In this document: positions 18,204 through 27,632 of the stretch, piece after piece
How positions within the stretch are numbered: position 1 is the first letter of the stretch
How the letters are laid out: every line of letters begins with the position of its first letter
From: Alphaproteobacteria bacterium
GTDB taxonomy: Bacteria; Pseudomonadota; Alphaproteobacteria; JANQMY01
Assembly: GCA_028289425.1 (NCBI GenBank)
Contig: JANQPL010000004.1
Location: 620,001-684,000, forward strand
Length of the DNA: 64,000 nt
Reading direction: 5' to 3'
Notes under the pieces: generated by a model
The model's database searches: none
What the model was told of the DNA's origin: nothing
Seen by the model: the letters and a program-made list of their open reading frames with translations, nothing else
Translations under genes and position numbers: made by a program

Positions 18204-19736
18204 GTGACGGACGTTTACATCTCATTTGATCGGGAAGACCTGAGCGACGTTCAGATAATGGCCGCGCTTTTAAAGGCCAAAGATTTCGACGTTCAGCCGG
18301 ACTTCGGGAACGACGATTCGGACTTGTCGGAGTTCGAAGCAAGGCGAGAACGCTTTCGCGCCAAGTGCGTCCTTGCGGTGTGGTCGAAGTCGTCCGTCAA
18401 ACCCCGCTCGTCTGTCAGAGCGGAGCTGTCCTCGGGGATACAACGGAATCGCTTGATCTCTGTCCTGCTTGAACCTGTGGAGGTGCCGTCACGGTTCAAG
18501 CGCGCCGAAAAAGTGAACTTGATTGGTTGGGAGCAGGACCCAAACAATCTGTATTGGCGGGAACTTGTTAAGCTTGTCGAAAAGAAAGTGGGCCGCAAGA
18601 AGAAGGCCCCTTGGTGGTATCGCGCGCTTATTGGGGCGGGGATTGTCTTATTGGCGCTCTTGATGTGCCTGCTCTTGTTTGCTGTGGTGTACTATTGGCA
18701 GGACATTGTAGAGTCCTCGCCCCGCCCAGATAGTTCCGTTGGAGACACGATCTTCCGCCAACCCGGAATTAGAAGCCCCAGAACCGACGCCTACACGCCG
18801 CAACCTCTCGGCCGCGACTGCAAGCATTGTCCGGACATGGTGTTGATCCCGGCCGGTTCCTTCGAAATGGGCGAGGAACAAGGCGATTGGAAAACCAATA
18901 CCACCCCTCAGCATGATGTGACCTTCGCCAAACCGTTTGCCGTTGCCATCCACGAGGTCACCTGGGGCGAGTGGTTCGCTTGCCAACAGGCGGGCTATTG
19001 CAAGCCGGCCGCTGCCGGATACCCCGATGACAAACCGATCGAATGGTACGACCAGCCGGTGACCCATGTGACCTGGCACGAAATCAGAGAAGACTATCTG
19101 GAATGGCTCAACCGGGACTTGGATTTGTGGGACAAGGACGACCCCTATCGCAGGTTCCGGCTGCTTTCGGAAGCGGAATGGGAACGCGTTGCCCGCGCAG
19201 GCAGCACCACGGCCTATTCCTTTGGCGACAATGATGCGGATTTGTGTGATCACGGCAATGGACGGGACCGCAGCAGTTTCATTTTTCATCCGTCCACAAA
19301 CTTAAAATGCTACGACGGATTTGGCGCGGAAACGGCACCGGTCATGTCGTTCCCGGCAAATCCATTCGGTGTTTACGACATGCACGGCAACGTTTGGGAA
19401 TGGGTGGAAGATTGCTATCGCCCAAACTACGAAGGAGCGCCGGACAATGGCCGTGCCTGGACGGCGGGCGAATGTGCCCAACGTGTCATTCGCGGCGGCA
19501 GCTGGGAGTCACGTTCCGCCCATCTGCGTTCCTCCTATCGTGCACGTCGGGAACCCCATACAGAAGATTGGACGATCGGCTTCAGGCTCGCCCGCGACTG
19601 TCCACCAAAGGCCGTTAGCGCTGATGAATGCAAGATCTACTCAAAATATCGTCTCAGCCTGGGCGAAACGCCGCCGGCCACGCCCCCGGCCACAGGCTCC
19701 GGCTCGGGCCGGGGCTCCCAAAGAACGGTGCGCTAA
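18204..19736 (+). CDS. TIR domain - transmembrane - SUMF1 (FGE-sulfatase-like) protein
   Basis: A 510-residue three-part protein. Residues 1-125 form a TIR_2-type domain (VYISFDREDLSD at 4-15, CVLAVWSKSSVKPRSS at 55-70); Glu74 in VRAEL is at the position of the catalytic Glu of TIR NADases, though the usual Trp before it is absent. Residues about 139-164 are one membrane helix, placing TIR in the cytoplasm. Residues about 211-466 are a SUMF1/C-type-lectin-like domain (MVLIPAGSFEMGEE, FRLLSEAEWERVARAG, GVYDMHGNVWEWVED, VIRGGSW, IGFRLARD). The paired Cys of true formylglycine-generating enzymes are missing there, so ligand sensing is more likely than sulfatase activation. Start is GTG 18204. 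A Pro/Gly/Ser-rich tail ends the protein. Confidence 0.85.
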   Translation: MTDVYISFDREDLSDVQIMAALLKAKDFDVQPDFGNDDSDLSEFEARRERFRAKCVLAVWSKSSVKPRSSVRAELSSGIQRNRLISVLLEPVEVPSRFKRAEKVNLIGWEQDPNNLYWRELVKLVEKKVGRKKKAPWWYRALIGAGIVLLALLMCLLLFAVVYYWQDIVESSPRPDSSVGDTIFRQPGIRSPRTDAYTPQPLGRDCKHCPDMVLIPAGSFEMGEEQGDWKTNTTPQHDVTFAKPFAVAIHEVTWGEWFACQQAGYCKPAAAGYPDDKPIEWYDQPVTHVTWHEIREDYLEWLNRDLDLWDKDDPYRRFRLLSEAEWERVARAGSTTAYSFGDNDADLCDHGNGRDRSSFIFHPSTNLKCYDGFGAETAPVMSFPANPFGVYDMHGNVWEWVEDCYRPNYEGAPDNGRAWTAGECAQRVIRGGSWESRSAHLRSSYRARREPHTEDWTIGFRLARDCPPKAVSADECKIYSKYRLSLGETPPATPPATGSGSGRGSQRTVR

Positions 19737-21471: not shown

Positions 21472-23124
21472 ATGGAACAGCTCAGCGGTCTCGATTCTTC
21501 ATTTCTCTATTTTGAAAGCCAGCGCACGCCGATGCATATCGGTGGCATCGCCATCTACGACCCCTCCACGGCGCCGGGCGGCAAGGTGCGCTTCAAGCAA
21601 ATCATTCAATACATCGAAGATCGCATGCACCGGGCGAAAAGCTTCCGCCAGCGCTTGGTGAACGTGCCGCTGAATTTGGACTACCCCTATTGGATCGAAG
21701 ATCCGGATTTCGATATCGAGTTTCACATTCGTCACATTGCCCTGCCGGAGCCGGGCGATTGGCGGCAATTGTGCATCCAAGCGGCGCGTCTGCATTCGCG
21801 GCCGTTGGATCTCACCAAGCCGCTTTGGGAATTCACCGTGGTGGAAGGCTTGGACAATGTGAAGGGCCTGCCCAAAGGGTGCTATGGCATTATCACCAAG
21901 ATCCACCATGCGGCGATCGACGGTGTGTCCGGCGTGGATATGACCACCGCCATTCATGCGTTGGACGTGGAAGATGAAGTGGAAACGCCGGAACATCCTT
22001 GGGTGCCCGAACGCGTTCCGACCACGCCGGAACTCTTGGCGCGCGCTTACAGCAACACGCTGACGACGCCGCTGCGTCTGGCCAACATCGCGGCCAAGTC
22101 GATCCCCACCCTTGCCGGCGTGGCGCGGTCCGTCAGCCGGGGCGAGCTGAAGCTGCCCACCGCCCCCAATTCCATCCCGCGCACCCGGTTCAACCGGGTG
22201 GTGTCGCCCCATCGCGTGGTGGACGGTAAGTCGTTTGACCTTGGCACTATCCGCGAGATGAAAAGCCGCCAGCCCGGCGCCACGGTCAATGATGTGGTGC
22301 TGGCGATTGTGGGCGGCGCGTTGCGCATTTACCTCAAATCAAAAAACGAGCTGCCCTCCGAACCGCTGGTGACCATGGCGCCCGTGTCGGTGCGCTCGGA
22401 AGGAGAGCGCGGCTCGATGGGCAATCAGGTAACCGCCATGTCGGTTTCTCTGGGCACCCATGTGGCGGATCCGGTTGGACGGCTGCAATTCGTCCGGCAA
22501 AGCGCGCTCGATTCCAAAGCGCTCACCAATGCGGTGGGCGCCCGTCAGTTGGCGGACTACACCAAGTTTCTGTCCCCCGTGACCACGGGGCTGGCCGCGC
22601 GGCTTTACACGCGCATGGGTCTCGCCAATCGCTTCTATCCGGTGTTCAACACGGTGGTGACAAATGTTCCGGGCCCTCAAATGCCGCTCTACTCGGCAGG
22701 CGCGAAACTGGTCACCCAATACGGCCTCGGGCCCGTGTTCGACGGTGTGGGCCTGTTCCATCCGGTCTTCAGCTATTGCGGCCACATCACCATCGCCGCC
22801 AATGCCTGCCGCGATATGATGCCCGATCCGGAATTCTATGCGGACTGCTTGCAGGACTCCTTCGATGAGTTGAAAGCCGGCCTTATGAAGCGGCCCGCCG
22901 CGTCGGTCGCGAAGTCTGAATCGCGCAAGAAGCCAGCCGCTAAGGCGAAGCGGAAGCCCACGGCACGGAAGTCCCCGTCGGCAAAAGGGAAGGCCGCTAA
23001 AAAAGAACAGGCGGAAATCGTCGATTTCCAAGTTGCAGCGGCCGAAGCACAGGCGCCGGCGAACGGCAAGTCGACCAACGGCATGGCGCCGTCGACGGAA
23101 ACGTCCGGTCAGGAAAATTCGTAA
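21472..23124 (+). CDS. Wax ester synthase/diacylglycerol acyltransferase with basic C-terminal tail
   Basis: A 550-residue WS/DGAT acyltransferase, which esterifies diacylglycerol or fatty alcohol with acyl-CoA to make storage lipid at the membrane. PLDLTKPLWEF (residues 111-121), the catalytic HHAAIDG with His145-His146 and Asp150, and late blocks such as NVPGPQMPLYSAGAKL and GLFHPVFSYCGHITIAANAC identify the family. The enzyme domain ends near residue 470, the usual size. Residues about 471-515 are a Lys/Ala/Pro/Arg-rich tail (RKKPAAKAKRKPTARKSPSA) like histone H1 or the PhaF tail, then an acidic/neutral end. Such a tail is not part of typical WS/DGATs. Downstream lie two genes fit for lipid granules: a hydrolase and a phasin. 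Confidence 0.92.
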   Translation: MEQLSGLDSSFLYFESQRTPMHIGGIAIYDPSTAPGGKVRFKQIIQYIEDRMHRAKSFRQRLVNVPLNLDYPYWIEDPDFDIEFHIRHIALPEPGDWRQLCIQAARLHSRPLDLTKPLWEFTVVEGLDNVKGLPKGCYGIITKIHHAAIDGVSGVDMTTAIHALDVEDEVETPEHPWVPERVPTTPELLARAYSNTLTTPLRLANIAAKSIPTLAGVARSVSRGELKLPTAPNSIPRTRFNRVVSPHRVVDGKSFDLGTIREMKSRQPGATVNDVVLAIVGGALRIYLKSKNELPSEPLVTMAPVSVRSEGERGSMGNQVTAMSVSLGTHVADPVGRLQFVRQSALDSKALTNAVGARQLADYTKFLSPVTTGLAARLYTRMGLANRFYPVFNTVVTNVPGPQMPLYSAGAKLVTQYGLGPVFDGVGLFHPVFSYCGHITIAANACRDMMPDPEFYADCLQDSFDELKAGLMKRPAASVAKSESRKKPAAKAKRKPTARKSPSAKGKAAKKEQAEIVDFQVAAAEAQAPANGKSTNGMAPSTETSGQENS

Positions 23125-23150: not shown

Positions 23151-24068
23151 ATGGCAAGCCTTACCGCGAACGGCATCACCATCGAGTATGAAGATCACGG
23201 CCACGCCGGCGATCCGGCAATCGTTCTGATCATGGGGCTTGCCGCTCAATTGGTGTTGTGGCCGCGCGACTTGATCGACAGTTTGGTGGCGGCGGGCTTT
23301 CGGGTGGTGGCCTTCGACAATCGGGACATTGGCTTGTCCTACAAGTTTCACGGCCGGCGCACGGTGCATCCGCTCGTACAGGTCGCGGGCCGGGTGGTGG
23401 GGCTCCACAAATTGGCGCCTTATACGCTGCACAGTATGGCGAAAGATACCGTCGGCGTTATGGACGCGCTCGAGATTGAACAAGCGCATTTAGTGGGCGC
23501 CTCCATGGGCGGCATGATCGGCCAATTGACGGCGGCCCGCGCGCCCGACCGTGTCAGAAGCCTCACCGCCATAATGTCGACCACCGGTAATCCTCGACTG
23601 CCACAGGCGCGGCCGGAAATCACGCGAAAGATGCTGGGCAATCGTCCGCAAGGGAAGGATCGCGATACGCTGATCGATGCCAGCATGCAGATTTGGGATC
23701 TGATCGGCACGCCCGGCGACGACGAAAACCGCCAATCCCTCCGTGAGCGGATTGCGCACAGTTTTGACCGGTCCTATTACCCGCAAGGGGTGCGCCGCCA
23801 ATTGGCGGCTATATTGGCCACCGGCGATTTCCGCGAACAGTCTCGAAAAATCACGGCGCCCACTCTGGTGCTGCATGGATCGATCGATCCGCTGGCGCCC
23901 AAAGAAGGCGGTGAAGACATTGCCAGAAACGTTCCGGGCGCCCGCTTAGAAATCATCGACGGGATGGCACACGACCTTCCCGAAAAATTTCTGCCGCGCA
24001 TTTCCGGGCACATTCTCGATCATGTGCGGGCAGTGGAACGGGGAGAAGTCGACGCCGCGGCGGAATAG
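23151..24068 (+). CDS. Alpha/beta hydrolase
   Basis: A 305-residue alpha/beta hydrolase. The nucleophile elbow is GASMGG with Ser118; IVLIMGLAAQLVLWP is the oxyanion strand and loop, VVAFDNRDIGLS the next strand, and APTLVLHGSIDPLAP holds the acid, with His in DGMAHDLP. The IMGLAAQ and FDNRDIGLS patterns are typical of a group annotated as lipase/esterase or aclacinomycin methylesterase-like. It starts 26 bases after the WS/DGAT gene and precedes a phasin, which favours turnover of a storage lipid or CoA ester. Confidence 0.87.
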   Translation: MASLTANGITIEYEDHGHAGDPAIVLIMGLAAQLVLWPRDLIDSLVAAGFRVVAFDNRDIGLSYKFHGRRTVHPLVQVAGRVVGLHKLAPYTLHSMAKDTVGVMDALEIEQAHLVGASMGGMIGQLTAARAPDRVRSLTAIMSTTGNPRLPQARPEITRKMLGNRPQGKDRDTLIDASMQIWDLIGTPGDDENRQSLRERIAHSFDRSYYPQGVRRQLAAILATGDFREQSRKITAPTLVLHGSIDPLAPKEGGEDIARNVPGARLEIIDGMAHDLPEKFLPRISGHILDHVRAVERGEVDAAAE

Positions 24069-24128: not shown

Positions 24129-24473
24129 ATGGCAAATACCGGATTTTTTGATCGCATGACCGATGCTTTTAGTGGGCTGGGCGGTGGATTTCGTGGCTTT
24201 GGCGAAGAAGTCAATGCCAAAGGGCGCGAGCTAAATGTGCGTCTCATCGAAATGGCGCAGGAAAACACCGAACACGGCTTCAACACGGCCCGGGCCGTCT
24301 TTGAAGCAAAAGATATGAGCGAAGTGTTCCAACTTCAGCAGTCGGCTGTGCGCGAGGGGCTTGAGCGCAGCGTCAACCAGACACGCGAAATCGCCGAAAT
24401 GTTCGCGCAAGCGACCACGGCGGCGTTCAAGCCGTTGAGCGACGCGGTAGAGGATGTTCGGTCAGGGGACTGA
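24129..24473 (+). CDS. Phasin family protein
   Basis: A 114-residue, almost wholly helical protein with the phasin pattern: FQLQQSAVREGLERSVNQTR and EIAEMFAQATTAAFKPLSD contain the conserved Q-x-x-x-V/A spacing, with no membrane segment or signal. Phasins coat polyhydroxyalkanoate granules and some coat neutral-lipid inclusions. AAGGAGACAG lies just ahead of the ATG. A strong terminator follows. Its place after the WS/DGAT suggests that it coats wax ester or triacylglycerol droplets here; no PHA synthase gene is in the window. Confidence 0.8.
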   Translation: MANTGFFDRMTDAFSGLGGGFRGFGEEVNAKGRELNVRLIEMAQENTEHGFNTARAVFEAKDMSEVFQLQQSAVREGLERSVNQTREIAEMFAQATTAAFKPLSDAVEDVRSGD

Positions 24474-24570: not shown

Positions 24571-25371
24571 CTAGTACATGTGTCCCGACGAGGGATATAT
24601 GAAGGAGCGCACGCCCGACCGGTCGAAGGGCACCCATTCGTCTTCGGGCAGGGCGAGGCGGTCTGCGATCGCGTACATGACCGCGGCGTTCACGCCCAGG
24701 CCGCAATGGCTTGCGCGCACCTCGATATTGTCGGTCAGGTGATGCGGTTCCTCCAGGCAGTTTTGCCAGGCGACCACGCCGTCCGCCTTCGTGAAGATCG
24801 AGGTGGACGGAACGCCCGCGGGCGGGTCGCGCAGGACCTGCAAAATCTCTTCCATATGATCCGCTTCCGGGTCATGGCCGGTAAGCATCTTGTACAGGCG
24901 GTGCGGATGCGTGGCGCGGATATTGCCGTTGAACGGGCTGCCAAGGGAAATCACCTGGCGCACTTTCTCCGGATGGCGGCGGGCCATTTCCCGCGCGATG
25001 ATGCCGCCCAAACTCCAGCCCACCAGGCTGACCTTTCCGCGGTACTTTTCGAACATGTGCTCGAGCCGCTCGATGATCTTCTCGCCGTTCATGCCCACGG
25101 TCCGGTGCCCCAGGTTGGAGCCCAAATTCCAGGGGCGCGCTTTGTAGCCGCGGCCGGCAATGAAGCGCCGTAAAATGTTTGTGCTGCCGTCGCCCGCGAT
25201 AAAGCCAGGTAGGACGAGTACGGAATGTCCGTCGCCGCGGGGCGCCGTTTGCAATAGAAGAGGTGCAGCGAGTGGAAGTGCAGCCAATTCGGTCAGAGCT
25301 CGTCCGCCCTCTGACAATGCGAGCCGCATAGAAGGCGCACGAATCTCGCTCATATGTGCGACATACACCAT
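24571..25371 (-). CDS. Alpha/beta hydrolase (lipase/PGAP1-like)
   Basis: A 266-residue hydrolase with lipase character: LVLPGFIAGDGSTNILRRFI gives the oxyanion region, SLVGWSLGGIIAREMARRHP holds the nucleophile Ser120, ISLGSPFNG follows, and SHCGLGVNAAVMYAIADRL has the probable catalytic His. This layout resembles PGAP1-like and triacylglycerol lipase-type proteins. The start ATG 25371 has GGGAAGGGA just upstream. It lies opposite the phasin and downstream of btaAB on the same strand, within the lipid island. Confidence 0.85.
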   Translation of the reverse strand: MVYVAHMSEIRAPSMRLALSEGGRALTELAALPLAAPLLLQTAPRGDGHSVLVLPGFIAGDGSTNILRRFIAGRGYKARPWNLGSNLGHRTVGMNGEKIIERLEHMFEKYRGKVSLVGWSLGGIIAREMARRHPEKVRQVISLGSPFNGNIRATHPHRLYKMLTGHDPEADHMEEILQVLRDPPAGVPSTSIFTKADGVVAWQNCLEEPHHLTDNIEVRASHCGLGVNAAVMYAIADRLALPEDEWVPFDRSGVRSFIYPSSGHMY

Positions 25372-25572: not shown

Positions 25573-26226
25573 TCAGCAAGCCCGCTCAAACGTTAACAGA
25601 TAGGCATAGCCACGCATAAAGTTACGAAAAGTCACACGTCCTGCACCGGTATCCGCCAATTGATCGAAATAAGCGCGGATTTCCGGACGGAAACGTACGT
25701 GAAACGCGGACAGCCAAGCGCCCAACATTTTTTTGAACCATTTGGGCAATTGGTCTTGATTGCCGAAATCCACGATGTGAATGAAGCCGTCCGGTTTGAT
25801 CTGTGTAAGTCCGTAATCGATCGCGGACTGCCATTCATCGATCATGGAGAGGCTGTAGGAAAACAGCAGCCGGTCGAAAGGCTCCGAAAGTCCGAAAAGG
25901 GTGCGGCCGTCAAAGTCTTGCGCGAGCGCCTGGGCGATCTGAATGCGGTGGGTCAGCCCCGCCTTGTCGATGGCCACTTGAGCCGTTTTCAGCATCTCGT
26001 CGGAGGCATCGATGCCGTAAAGCCGCGCCTGCGGAAAACGCTGGGCGAGGGTGATGAGGTTGCGCGCCGTGCCGCAGCCCACCTCGCAAATGGTTTCGCC
26101 GGGCAGGATCGGCAAATCCTGGATCAGCGAGTCGCGGCCGAACAGATAGTATTTGCGGGTGAAATCATAAATGTGCCGCTGGTAGCGGTACATTTGATCC
26201 ATTGCCGAACGGGCATCCATGGCCAT
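25573..26226 (-). CDS. btaB: Diacylglyceryl-homoserine N-methyltransferase BtaB
   Basis: A 217-residue class I SAM methyltransferase. YRYQRHIYDFTRKYYLFGRD (residues 13-32) is the characteristic BtaB-type opening, and CEVGCGTARN (47-56) the SAM-binding loop, followed by LYGIDASDEML. It would add three methyl groups to diacylglyceryl-homoserine to give the betaine lipid DGTS at the membrane. It starts 4 bases after the btaA stop, which strongly supports the assignment. ATG 26226 and 26220 are both possible starts. Confidence 0.9.
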   Translation of the reverse strand: MAMDARSAMDQMYRYQRHIYDFTRKYYLFGRDSLIQDLPILPGETICEVGCGTARNLITLAQRFPQARLYGIDASDEMLKTAQVAIDKAGLTHRIQIAQALAQDFDGRTLFGLSEPFDRLLFSYSLSMIDEWQSAIDYGLTQIKPDGFIHIVDFGNQDQLPKWFKKMLGAWLSAFHVRFRPEIRAYFDQLADTGAGRVTFRNFMRGYAYLLTFERAC

Positions 26227-26230
26227 GCGG

Positions 26231-27445
26231 TCAGGCGGCCTTGGTGTAGATGTGGAACCCGCCATAGATGGAAGACCGGTCGCGCTCGAGGAAGCGGCGG
26301 CCCCGTTCGCCGTCATAAGACCAAGGGGCCAGCACGTCGGTCGGCAGCTTTCTTTCCAGGGGGGACTCTTCCCCCGCCGTGCGGAAGATCACCCGTGCCC
26401 CCGGCGCCGCCGTGCGGCCGATCTCACGCCACAGGGCCGTTATCTGCTCCTCATTCATCCAGTCTTGGGAATCGAGCAGCACATAGCGGTCCAGACTTTC
26501 ATCGGGTTTGGACGCGAGGTAGTCGGTCATGGACGCCAAATGGGTTTCCACATTGCCGACCCGGCCGCGCAAAGGTTCGTATTGTTCCGGGCGCAGATAT
26601 TCCGGAATGGCATTTTTTTCTTCCACGTCGTAGCGGCGGCCGAAGGCCTGCCACGCGAAATAGTTTTCGGAGATCGGGAAGTCGCAGGCCAGGCGTTCGA
26701 TCCGCTCACGGAACAAATTGGCAGGGCTGCCATTGGCCGCCGCCATTAGTTCGTCATGCTGTGCCGGCGGAATGCCGAGCCAGTAGAATGAGACCGGCAG
26801 GCGGGCCATGGCCTTCACGAAACGTGAATCGAACATGGGGCCGATCGCCCGCTCGTAGATTGCCCGCTGTTCCTCCAACGTCTTTGCCTGCAATACCTCA
26901 GAGGGGCGCTTCCCGTGAATGCGCGAGACCAAATGAACCAGCCCGATAAACCGCCCCAGCAGGCTGTGGTGATAGAGATTGCGGGCGAACATGTTGATCC
27001 GCCGGCCGCCCCAGGGCACCCAGCGCTGCCAATAGCGGCGGGTGTTGTCGTCCAGATGGGGCAGCAGATATTGGTCGTAAGAGCTGCGGTTGTCCCGGTC
27101 GTCGGCAATCCCGAAAAACAGGAAGAAATCTTCATAGGACGGCAGATGTTCCAGGGCCGCCAGTTTCAGCCGGGTCAGCGCAATGTGGTTGGGGTTGAGG
27201 TCGATGGCGATGATCTGGGCGGGATTGGCCGTCAGATACGTCATCACATTGCAGCCGCCCGAGGCGATCGTGACGATCCGGGTGCTGTCGTCCACCTCCA
27301 GCGCTTCCAGGTCGACCGCCGGATCCTCCCATATCTGGTTGTAGACGAACCCCTGAAACATCATCGTAAAGAGGCGTTCGAGAACGCCGCGCTTGGTGAC
27401 CGCTGCATGATTCACAGCTGCTTCAGACAACAATTTGTTGGCCAT
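26231..27445 (-). CDS. btaA: SAM:diacylglycerol 3-amino-3-carboxypropyltransferase BtaA (DUF3419)
   Basis: A 404-residue DUF3419/BtaA protein. VYNQIWEDPAVDLEALEV (residues about 33-50) and IVTIASGGCNVMTYLTANP with IIAIDLNPNHIALTRLKLAA form the SAM-binding part; LLDSQDWMNEEQITALWREI lies in the C-terminal part. The enzyme moves the aminocarboxypropyl group of SAM to diacylglycerol, the first step of betaine lipid (DGTS) synthesis, giving bacteria a phosphorus-free membrane lipid. AAGGAAAA precedes ATG 27445 by about 7 bases. btaB follows directly. Known bacterial btaAB are induced under phosphate limitation. Confidence 0.93.
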   Translation of the reverse strand: MANKLLSEAAVNHAAVTKRGVLERLFTMMFQGFVYNQIWEDPAVDLEALEVDDSTRIVTIASGGCNVMTYLTANPAQIIAIDLNPNHIALTRLKLAALEHLPSYEDFFLFFGIADDRDNRSSYDQYLLPHLDDNTRRYWQRWVPWGGRRINMFARNLYHHSLLGRFIGLVHLVSRIHGKRPSEVLQAKTLEEQRAIYERAIGPMFDSRFVKAMARLPVSFYWLGIPPAQHDELMAAANGSPANLFRERIERLACDFPISENYFAWQAFGRRYDVEEKNAIPEYLRPEQYEPLRGRVGNVETHLASMTDYLASKPDESLDRYVLLDSQDWMNEEQITALWREIGRTAAPGARVIFRTAGEESPLERKLPTDVLAPWSYDGERGRRFLERDRSSIYGGFHIYTKAA

Positions 27446-27552
27446 TGCCGTATTTTCCTTGGAAATAGTGCGCGAAATAAAATGTCGGCCGCCGGCAACG
27501 CACCCCAATCGGCCGCCGACGCCCATCAAGTCGCACGGATCAAACCCCGCTC

Positions 27553-27632
27553 TTACCACAGAATGACAGGCAAGATAAACGCAATATCATCCGGATTTCC
27601 AGTTCGCACAGCATTGGGTCAGCCTATGACAG
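27553..27632 (-). promoter_or_regulatory. Candidate PhoB-type sites upstream of btaA
   Basis: On the minus strand, in the direction of btaA, two perfect CTGTCAT half-sites occur: CTGTCATAGGCTGACCC (27632-27616) and CTGTCATTCTGTGGTAA (27569-27553). CTGTCAT is the first half of the Pho box; the second halves are degenerate, and the first pair is spaced one base short. They lie about 110 and 175 bases before the btaA start. PhoB control is inferred from these and from the known regulation of btaAB. Confidence 0.45.

What the first reader, a model, noticed from the sequence alone, without database searches (positions are those of the whole stretch)
21472..23124. WS/DGAT acyltransferase with a histone H1-like basic tail
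After the complete acyltransferase domain (to about residue 470) the protein continues with about 45 residues made mostly of Lys, Arg, Ala, Pro and Ser, then about 35 polar residues. The phasin PhaF of Pseudomonas has a tail of this kind that ties storage granules to the nucleoid, and MLDS-type proteins do so for triacylglycerol droplets. A storage-lipid synthase with its own DNA-binding tail would tie droplet formation and segregation together in one protein. Tail and domain are seen; the tether role is inference.
Basis: partly seen in the sequence, partly recalled or inferred. Interest (0 to 1): 0.7.

Follow-up and report, generated by a model that had tools for sequence, protein, structure and literature searches.

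The report
Fat-storage enzyme with DNA-tether-like tail
A bacterial enzyme that makes storage fat carries a loose, positively charged tail like those that tie storage granules to the chromosome in other bacteria; most relatives in one large branch have such a tail and many sit next to a granule-coat gene, but DNA binding has not been tested.

Summary
The protein at 21472-23124 (+) is an intact WS/DGAT (aa 4-469; HHAAIDG kept). It is followed by 44 residues with net charge +14 (12 Lys, 4 Arg), then 36 polar residues; residues 492-550 are predicted disordered. The tail is not a one-off: in the 57-sequence clade around this protein, 50 have a basic or weakly basic tail and 4 a helix-hairpin-helix tail, while a clade of 13 gammaproteobacterial homologues has none. 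Tail sequence drifts (49% identity to the same-genus orthologue, core 87%) while charge is kept. Both phasin genes of this genome lie beside a WS/DGAT: at one locus the enzyme carries the basic stretch, at the other the phasin does. Of 41 phasin-adjacent WS/DGATs 40 have a tail, against 12 of 36 others, though few lineages are independent. Best reading: a tether of the storage granule to nucleoid DNA, as in PhaF, MLDS and AlgP. Rivals: anionic phospholipid anchoring (shown for HBHA) or RNA/ribosome contact. No DNA-binding evidence exists; the helix-hairpin-helix tails are nearest to those of ribosomal protein L21 and a complex I subunit, so they do not settle it. I found no published WS/DGAT with such a tail.

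The parts
21472..22881 (+). WS/DGAT catalytic and C-terminal domains (aa 1-470), HHAAIDG active-site motif at aa 145-151
22882..23013 (+). basic H1-like segment, aa 471-514, 16 K+R of 44, net +14
   Evidence: outside the folded domain in the model
23014..23121 (+). polar, slightly acidic terminal segment, aa 515-550
   Evidence: an analogous 35-aa tail without basic residues follows the basic domain of PhaF (PMC3574117)
23151..24068 (+). alpha/beta hydrolase, second gene of the conserved cluster
24129..24473 (+). Phasin_2 granule-coat protein without a basic stretch
24571..25371 (-). second alpha/beta hydrolase; homologues lie near WS/DGAT genes in most relatives

Best explanation
The protein is a neutral-lipid synthase (triacylglycerol or wax ester) that works on the surface of growing storage granules coated by the neighbouring phasin. 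Its disordered Lys/Ala/Pro/Ser tail reaches away from the granule and binds the nucleoid non-specifically by charge, spacing the granules and sharing them between daughter cells. Shown here: intact enzyme domain, predicted disorder, charge, conservation of charge over sequence, phasin linkage. Inferred: enzyme activity, granule location, DNA as the ligand, and the spacing role.
For: Tail is far above background in charge and Lys. Tails with a 30-residue window of net +8 or more occur on 45% of 116 WS/DGATs but on 6.6% of the C-termini of 786 crude neighbouring ORFs (a background inflated by wrong-frame Arg-rich ORFs); pooled basic tails are 19.8% Lys, 24% Ala, 12% Pro against 2.8% Lys in background. 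Charge is kept while sequence drifts. The tail is clustered by clade: 50 of 57 basic or weak plus 4 HhH, against 0 of 13 in a Pseudomonadales/gammaproteobacterial clade. Both phasins of the genome are beside WS/DGATs, and at the second locus the phasin carries the basic stretch (+13) while the enzyme tail is acidic; the same holds in the other species of the genus. With a phasin within 2.6 kb downstream, 40 of 41 WS/DGATs have a tail. In this genome the other proteins found by the H1-like model are a stand-alone H1-like protein and topoisomerase I; a similar stretch starts the neighbouring RNase R. The only PHA synthase found has no such tail. Precedents: the Lys-rich C-terminus of MLDS binds DNA and ties lipid droplets to it, lost when Lys is changed to Glu (PMC5504291); PhaF (PMC3574117); AlgP for polyphosphate granules (PMC9239181).
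Against: No DNA-binding test. The basic stretch (44 aa) is much shorter than in AlgP (154 aa). HBHA, the mycobacterial homologue of MLDS, needs its Lys-rich tail to bind phosphoinositides and form lipid inclusions (PMC6176652), so the same composition can serve lipid binding. The phasin-tail association rests on only about three independent contrasts. Woeseiaceae and Parvibaculum homologues have tails without a neighbouring phasin.
Confidence: 0.5

Rival explanations
1. Electrostatic membrane anchor: the tail holds the enzyme on the anionic phospholipid of the inner membrane or droplet monolayer, where acyl-CoA and diacylglycerol meet.
For: HBHA's Lys-rich domain is needed for phosphoinositide binding and lipid-inclusion formation (PMC6176652). 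WS/DGATs act at lipid surfaces (general knowledge). Tails occur also where no phasin gene is adjacent.
Against: Pooled tails have almost no aromatic or large hydrophobic residues (F 0.2%, W 0, Y 0, I 1.1%, L 2.7%), though pure charge could suffice. The basic stretch sits on the phasin, not the enzyme, at the sister locus. Sister enzymes do without a tail.
Confidence: 0.25
2. RNA or ribosome contact, or a general scaffold for protein-protein contact at the granule.
For: HhH tails in Parvularculaceae are nearest, in the same genomes, to the HhH extension of ribosomal protein bL21, and in the PDB to a complex I 41 kDa subunit and a reaction-centre O chain. RNase R of this genome has a similar N-terminal stretch.
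Against: HhH tails are a minority replacement in one branch; they say little about the disordered tails. HhH folds also occur in DNA proteins (no significant Foldseek hit).
Confidence: 0.15
3. The tail has no specific role: a drifting disordered extension kept by weak constraint, for example for solubility.
For: Length 0-126 aa, sequence not conserved; absent or not basic in L101, L027 and L076.
Against: High Lys content persists in genomes whose other proteins use Arg over Lys; net charge is kept between orthologues at 49% tail identity; clade-wide retention.
Confidence: 0.1

Closest known systems
Bacterial WS/DGAT (TIGR02946; Acinetobacter baylyi WSD1 7nxg, Marinobacter WS/DGAT 6chj)
   Same: Catalytic and C-terminal domains, active-site motif, fold.
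   Different: The crystallised chains (463 and 455 aa) end about where the domain ends; this one has 80 further residues.
PhaF of Pseudomonas putida
   Same: Storage-granule protein with a disordered, highly charged DNA-binding C-terminal part followed by about 35 residues without basic charge (PMC3574117).
   Different: PhaF is a phasin; here the stretch is on the synthase and is shorter.
MLDS/TadA/HBHA of Actinobacteria
   Same: Lys/Ala/Pro C-terminus on a neutral-lipid inclusion protein; DNA binding shown for MLDS (PMC5504291), phosphoinositide binding for HBHA (PMC6176652).
   Different: Not acyltransferases; regular PAKKA repeats absent here.
AlgP of Pseudomonas aeruginosa
   Same: H1-like tail needed for even granule spacing (PMC9239181).
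   Different: Polyphosphate granules; 154-aa KPAA repeat region.

Membership tests
WS/DGAT (TIGR02946) | Full-length match above curated cut-off | tested here: met
   446.8 bits against 309.95
WS/DGAT (TIGR02946) | HHxxxDG active-site motif | tested here: met
   H145 H146 D150 G151 invariant in 32 sequences
WS/DGAT (TIGR02946) | Acyltransferase activity making TAG or wax ester | not testable with these tools
   needs enzyme assay
Granule-nucleoid tethers (PhaF/MLDS/AlgP kind, functional class) | Lys/Ala/Pro-rich disordered tail | tested here: met
Granule-nucleoid tethers (PhaF/MLDS/AlgP kind, functional class) | DNA binding by the tail | not testable with these tools
   no assay; inference only
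Granule-nucleoid tethers (PhaF/MLDS/AlgP kind, functional class) | Location on storage granules | tested here: inconclusive
   gene linkage to phasins, no localisation
Phasin (PhaF itself) | Phasin domain in the same chain | tested here: not met
   only WS/DGAT domains found; phasin is a separate neighbouring gene
Histone H1-like HC2 (PF07382) | Match to the HC2 model above cut-off | tested here: not met
   no HC2 match for the window tail; a relative's tail (L023) scores 36.2 bits, cut-off 40

The most novel reading that the evidence does not exclude
A whole branch of proteobacterial storage-lipid synthases carries its own nucleoid tether, so that the enzyme that starts a droplet also fixes it to the chromosome; the tether module sits on synthase or phasin within the same kind of locus, and a folded helix-hairpin-helix domain replaces it in one family.
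Probability: 0.4. Interest if true: 0.75.

Novelty: new variant of a known kind. Interest (0 to 1): 0.55.

Why it matters
How bacteria position and share lipid droplets is known from a few coat proteins only. A tether on the synthase itself would tie droplet birth to chromosome position, and would be easy to test because named Sphingomonas species carry the same architecture (for example L091, L096, L117). The phasin beside WS/DGAT in alphaproteobacteria also suggests that some phasins coat neutral-lipid droplets rather than PHA.

Tried and rejected
Frameshift or misread origin of the tail: rejected by in-frame conservation and codon pattern. Helix-hairpin-helix tails as proof of DNA binding: not accepted, because nearest relatives are bL21 and complex I or reaction-centre subunits and Foldseek gave no hit below E 0.001. 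Phasin-tail association as independent evidence: counts are strong (Fisher p about 4e-10) but only 3 supported independent pairs exist. HC2 model search of the window tail found nothing. PDB search of the tail alone found nothing. Genus, family and order searches all return the same 2 genomes, so close-range sampling is thin. Literature searches found no WS/DGAT with such a tail in the open-access library; subscription papers were not searchable.

Full report
Observation. The ORF at 21472-23124 (+) encodes 550 aa. Pfam and NCBIfam place a complete WS/DGAT at aa 4-469; the HHAAIDG motif is intact and its H, H, D, G are invariant among 32 relatives. The predicted structure matches the Acinetobacter and Marinobacter enzymes and is ordered up to a helix at 453-472; residues 492-550 are predicted disordered. 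Residues 471-514 carry 16 Lys/Arg of 44, net +14, far above neighbouring genes; 36 polar residues follow.

Is it real and kept? The same-genus orthologue has 87% identity in the core but 49% in the tail, with net tail charge +10 and +9. Across 116 WS/DGAT sequences from genome collections, 45% have a tail with a 30-residue stretch of net +8 or more, against 6.6% of the C-termini of 786 crude neighbouring ORFs; the basic tails are about 20% Lys in genomes whose other proteins have 3%. The background set was made by a simple longest-ORF rule and contains wrong-frame Arg-rich ORFs, so the true contrast is probably larger.

Distribution. A tree of 115 core domains (tail excluded) groups the labels strongly. 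The clade of 57 around the window protein, including Sphingomonas, has 44 basic, 6 weak, 4 HhH and 3 tail-less members, while a clade of 13 Pseudomonadales/gammaproteobacterial homologues has none (support 84 and 99, quick method). Woeseiaceae-type and Parvibaculum-type clades also have basic tails. The tree needs about 13 changes, so gains or losses recurred. Sampling follows sequence similarity to the window protein and is not a census.

Storage-granule link. The genome has six WS/DGATs; four have basic tails of 19-80 aa and two have acidic tails. It has only two Phasin_2 genes, each beside a WS/DGAT. At the window locus the enzyme is basic and the phasin is not. At the C12 locus the enzyme tail is acidic and the phasin has an N-terminal H1-like stretch, KTTAKRRTTKKAAPKTARRATAAKRTKAKAAPK. 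The other species of the genus shows the same division. In other lineages the division is not strict: some have basic stretches on both. Downstream phasins, spot-checked as PF09361, occur in most alphaproteobacterial relatives. Of 41 WS/DGATs with such a phasin, 40 have a tail; of 36 without, 12 do. Shared ancestry explains much of this, as only 3 independent contrasts are available.

Helix-hairpin-helix variant. Four relatives in or near Parvularculaceae have a linker and an HHH_5-like domain instead (23.8-27.6 bits, cut-off 27; inside the whole protein L085 it scores 24.0). Within the same genomes the nearest copy is the C-terminal extension of ribosomal protein bL21 (bL21 named by eye from sequence), and in one genome this gene lies about 2 kb from the WS/DGAT. 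In the PDB the best sequence matches are a complex I 41 kDa subunit and a reaction-centre O chain; NusA, topoisomerase V and S13 are weaker. This fits nucleic-acid or protein contact and does not prove DNA binding.

Mechanism. I think the tail most likely ties the synthase, and the droplet it sits on, to the nucleoid by non-specific charge, as shown or proposed for MLDS (PMC5504291), PhaF (PMC3574117) and AlgP (PMC9239181). In this genome the proteins found by the H1-like model are a stand-alone H1-like protein and topoisomerase I, with a similar stretch on the adjacent RNase R (the last two named by eye from sequence), and the PHA synthase lacks one. The main rival is phospholipid anchoring, shown for the Lys-rich end of HBHA (PMC6176652). 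Enzyme activity, granule location and ligand are all inferred.

Novelty. The parts are known; their union on a WS/DGAT was not found in the open-access papers searched. I class it as a new variant of a known kind, with a distribution that makes it testable in cultured Sphingomonas.

Noticed in passing
WS/DGAT C-termini, e.g. L047, L020, L060, L015; window 24057-24068: 20 of 116 WS/DGATs end in -AAE against 3 of 786 other ORFs; one of those 3 is the window's alpha/beta hydrolase (ends DAAAE), another its L046 homologue. Possible short terminal motif, partly shared ancestry.
   Followed up: partly
window 18204-19736 (+): Protein with an N-terminal TIR_2 domain (29.4 bits, cut-off 28) and a C-terminal FGE-sulfatase domain (184 bits).
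   Followed up: no
window 25573-27559 (-): DUF3419 protein and a methyltransferase in tandem, resembling the BtaA/BtaB pair for betaine lipids (the Bta reading is from general knowledge), next to the storage-lipid cluster.
   Followed up: no
G000:C17:97120-97698 (L127): Stand-alone H1-like protein made of KTTARK/KRKPAA repeats, over the HC2 cut-off.
   Followed up: no
L085 with L136 (G385 C107): In a Marinicaulis genome the bL21 gene with an HhH extension lies about 2 kb from the WS/DGAT with an HhH tail, a possible source of the fusion. The alpha/beta hydrolase there also ends with a basic stretch (KPKKRRRKKPAAS).
   Followed up: partly
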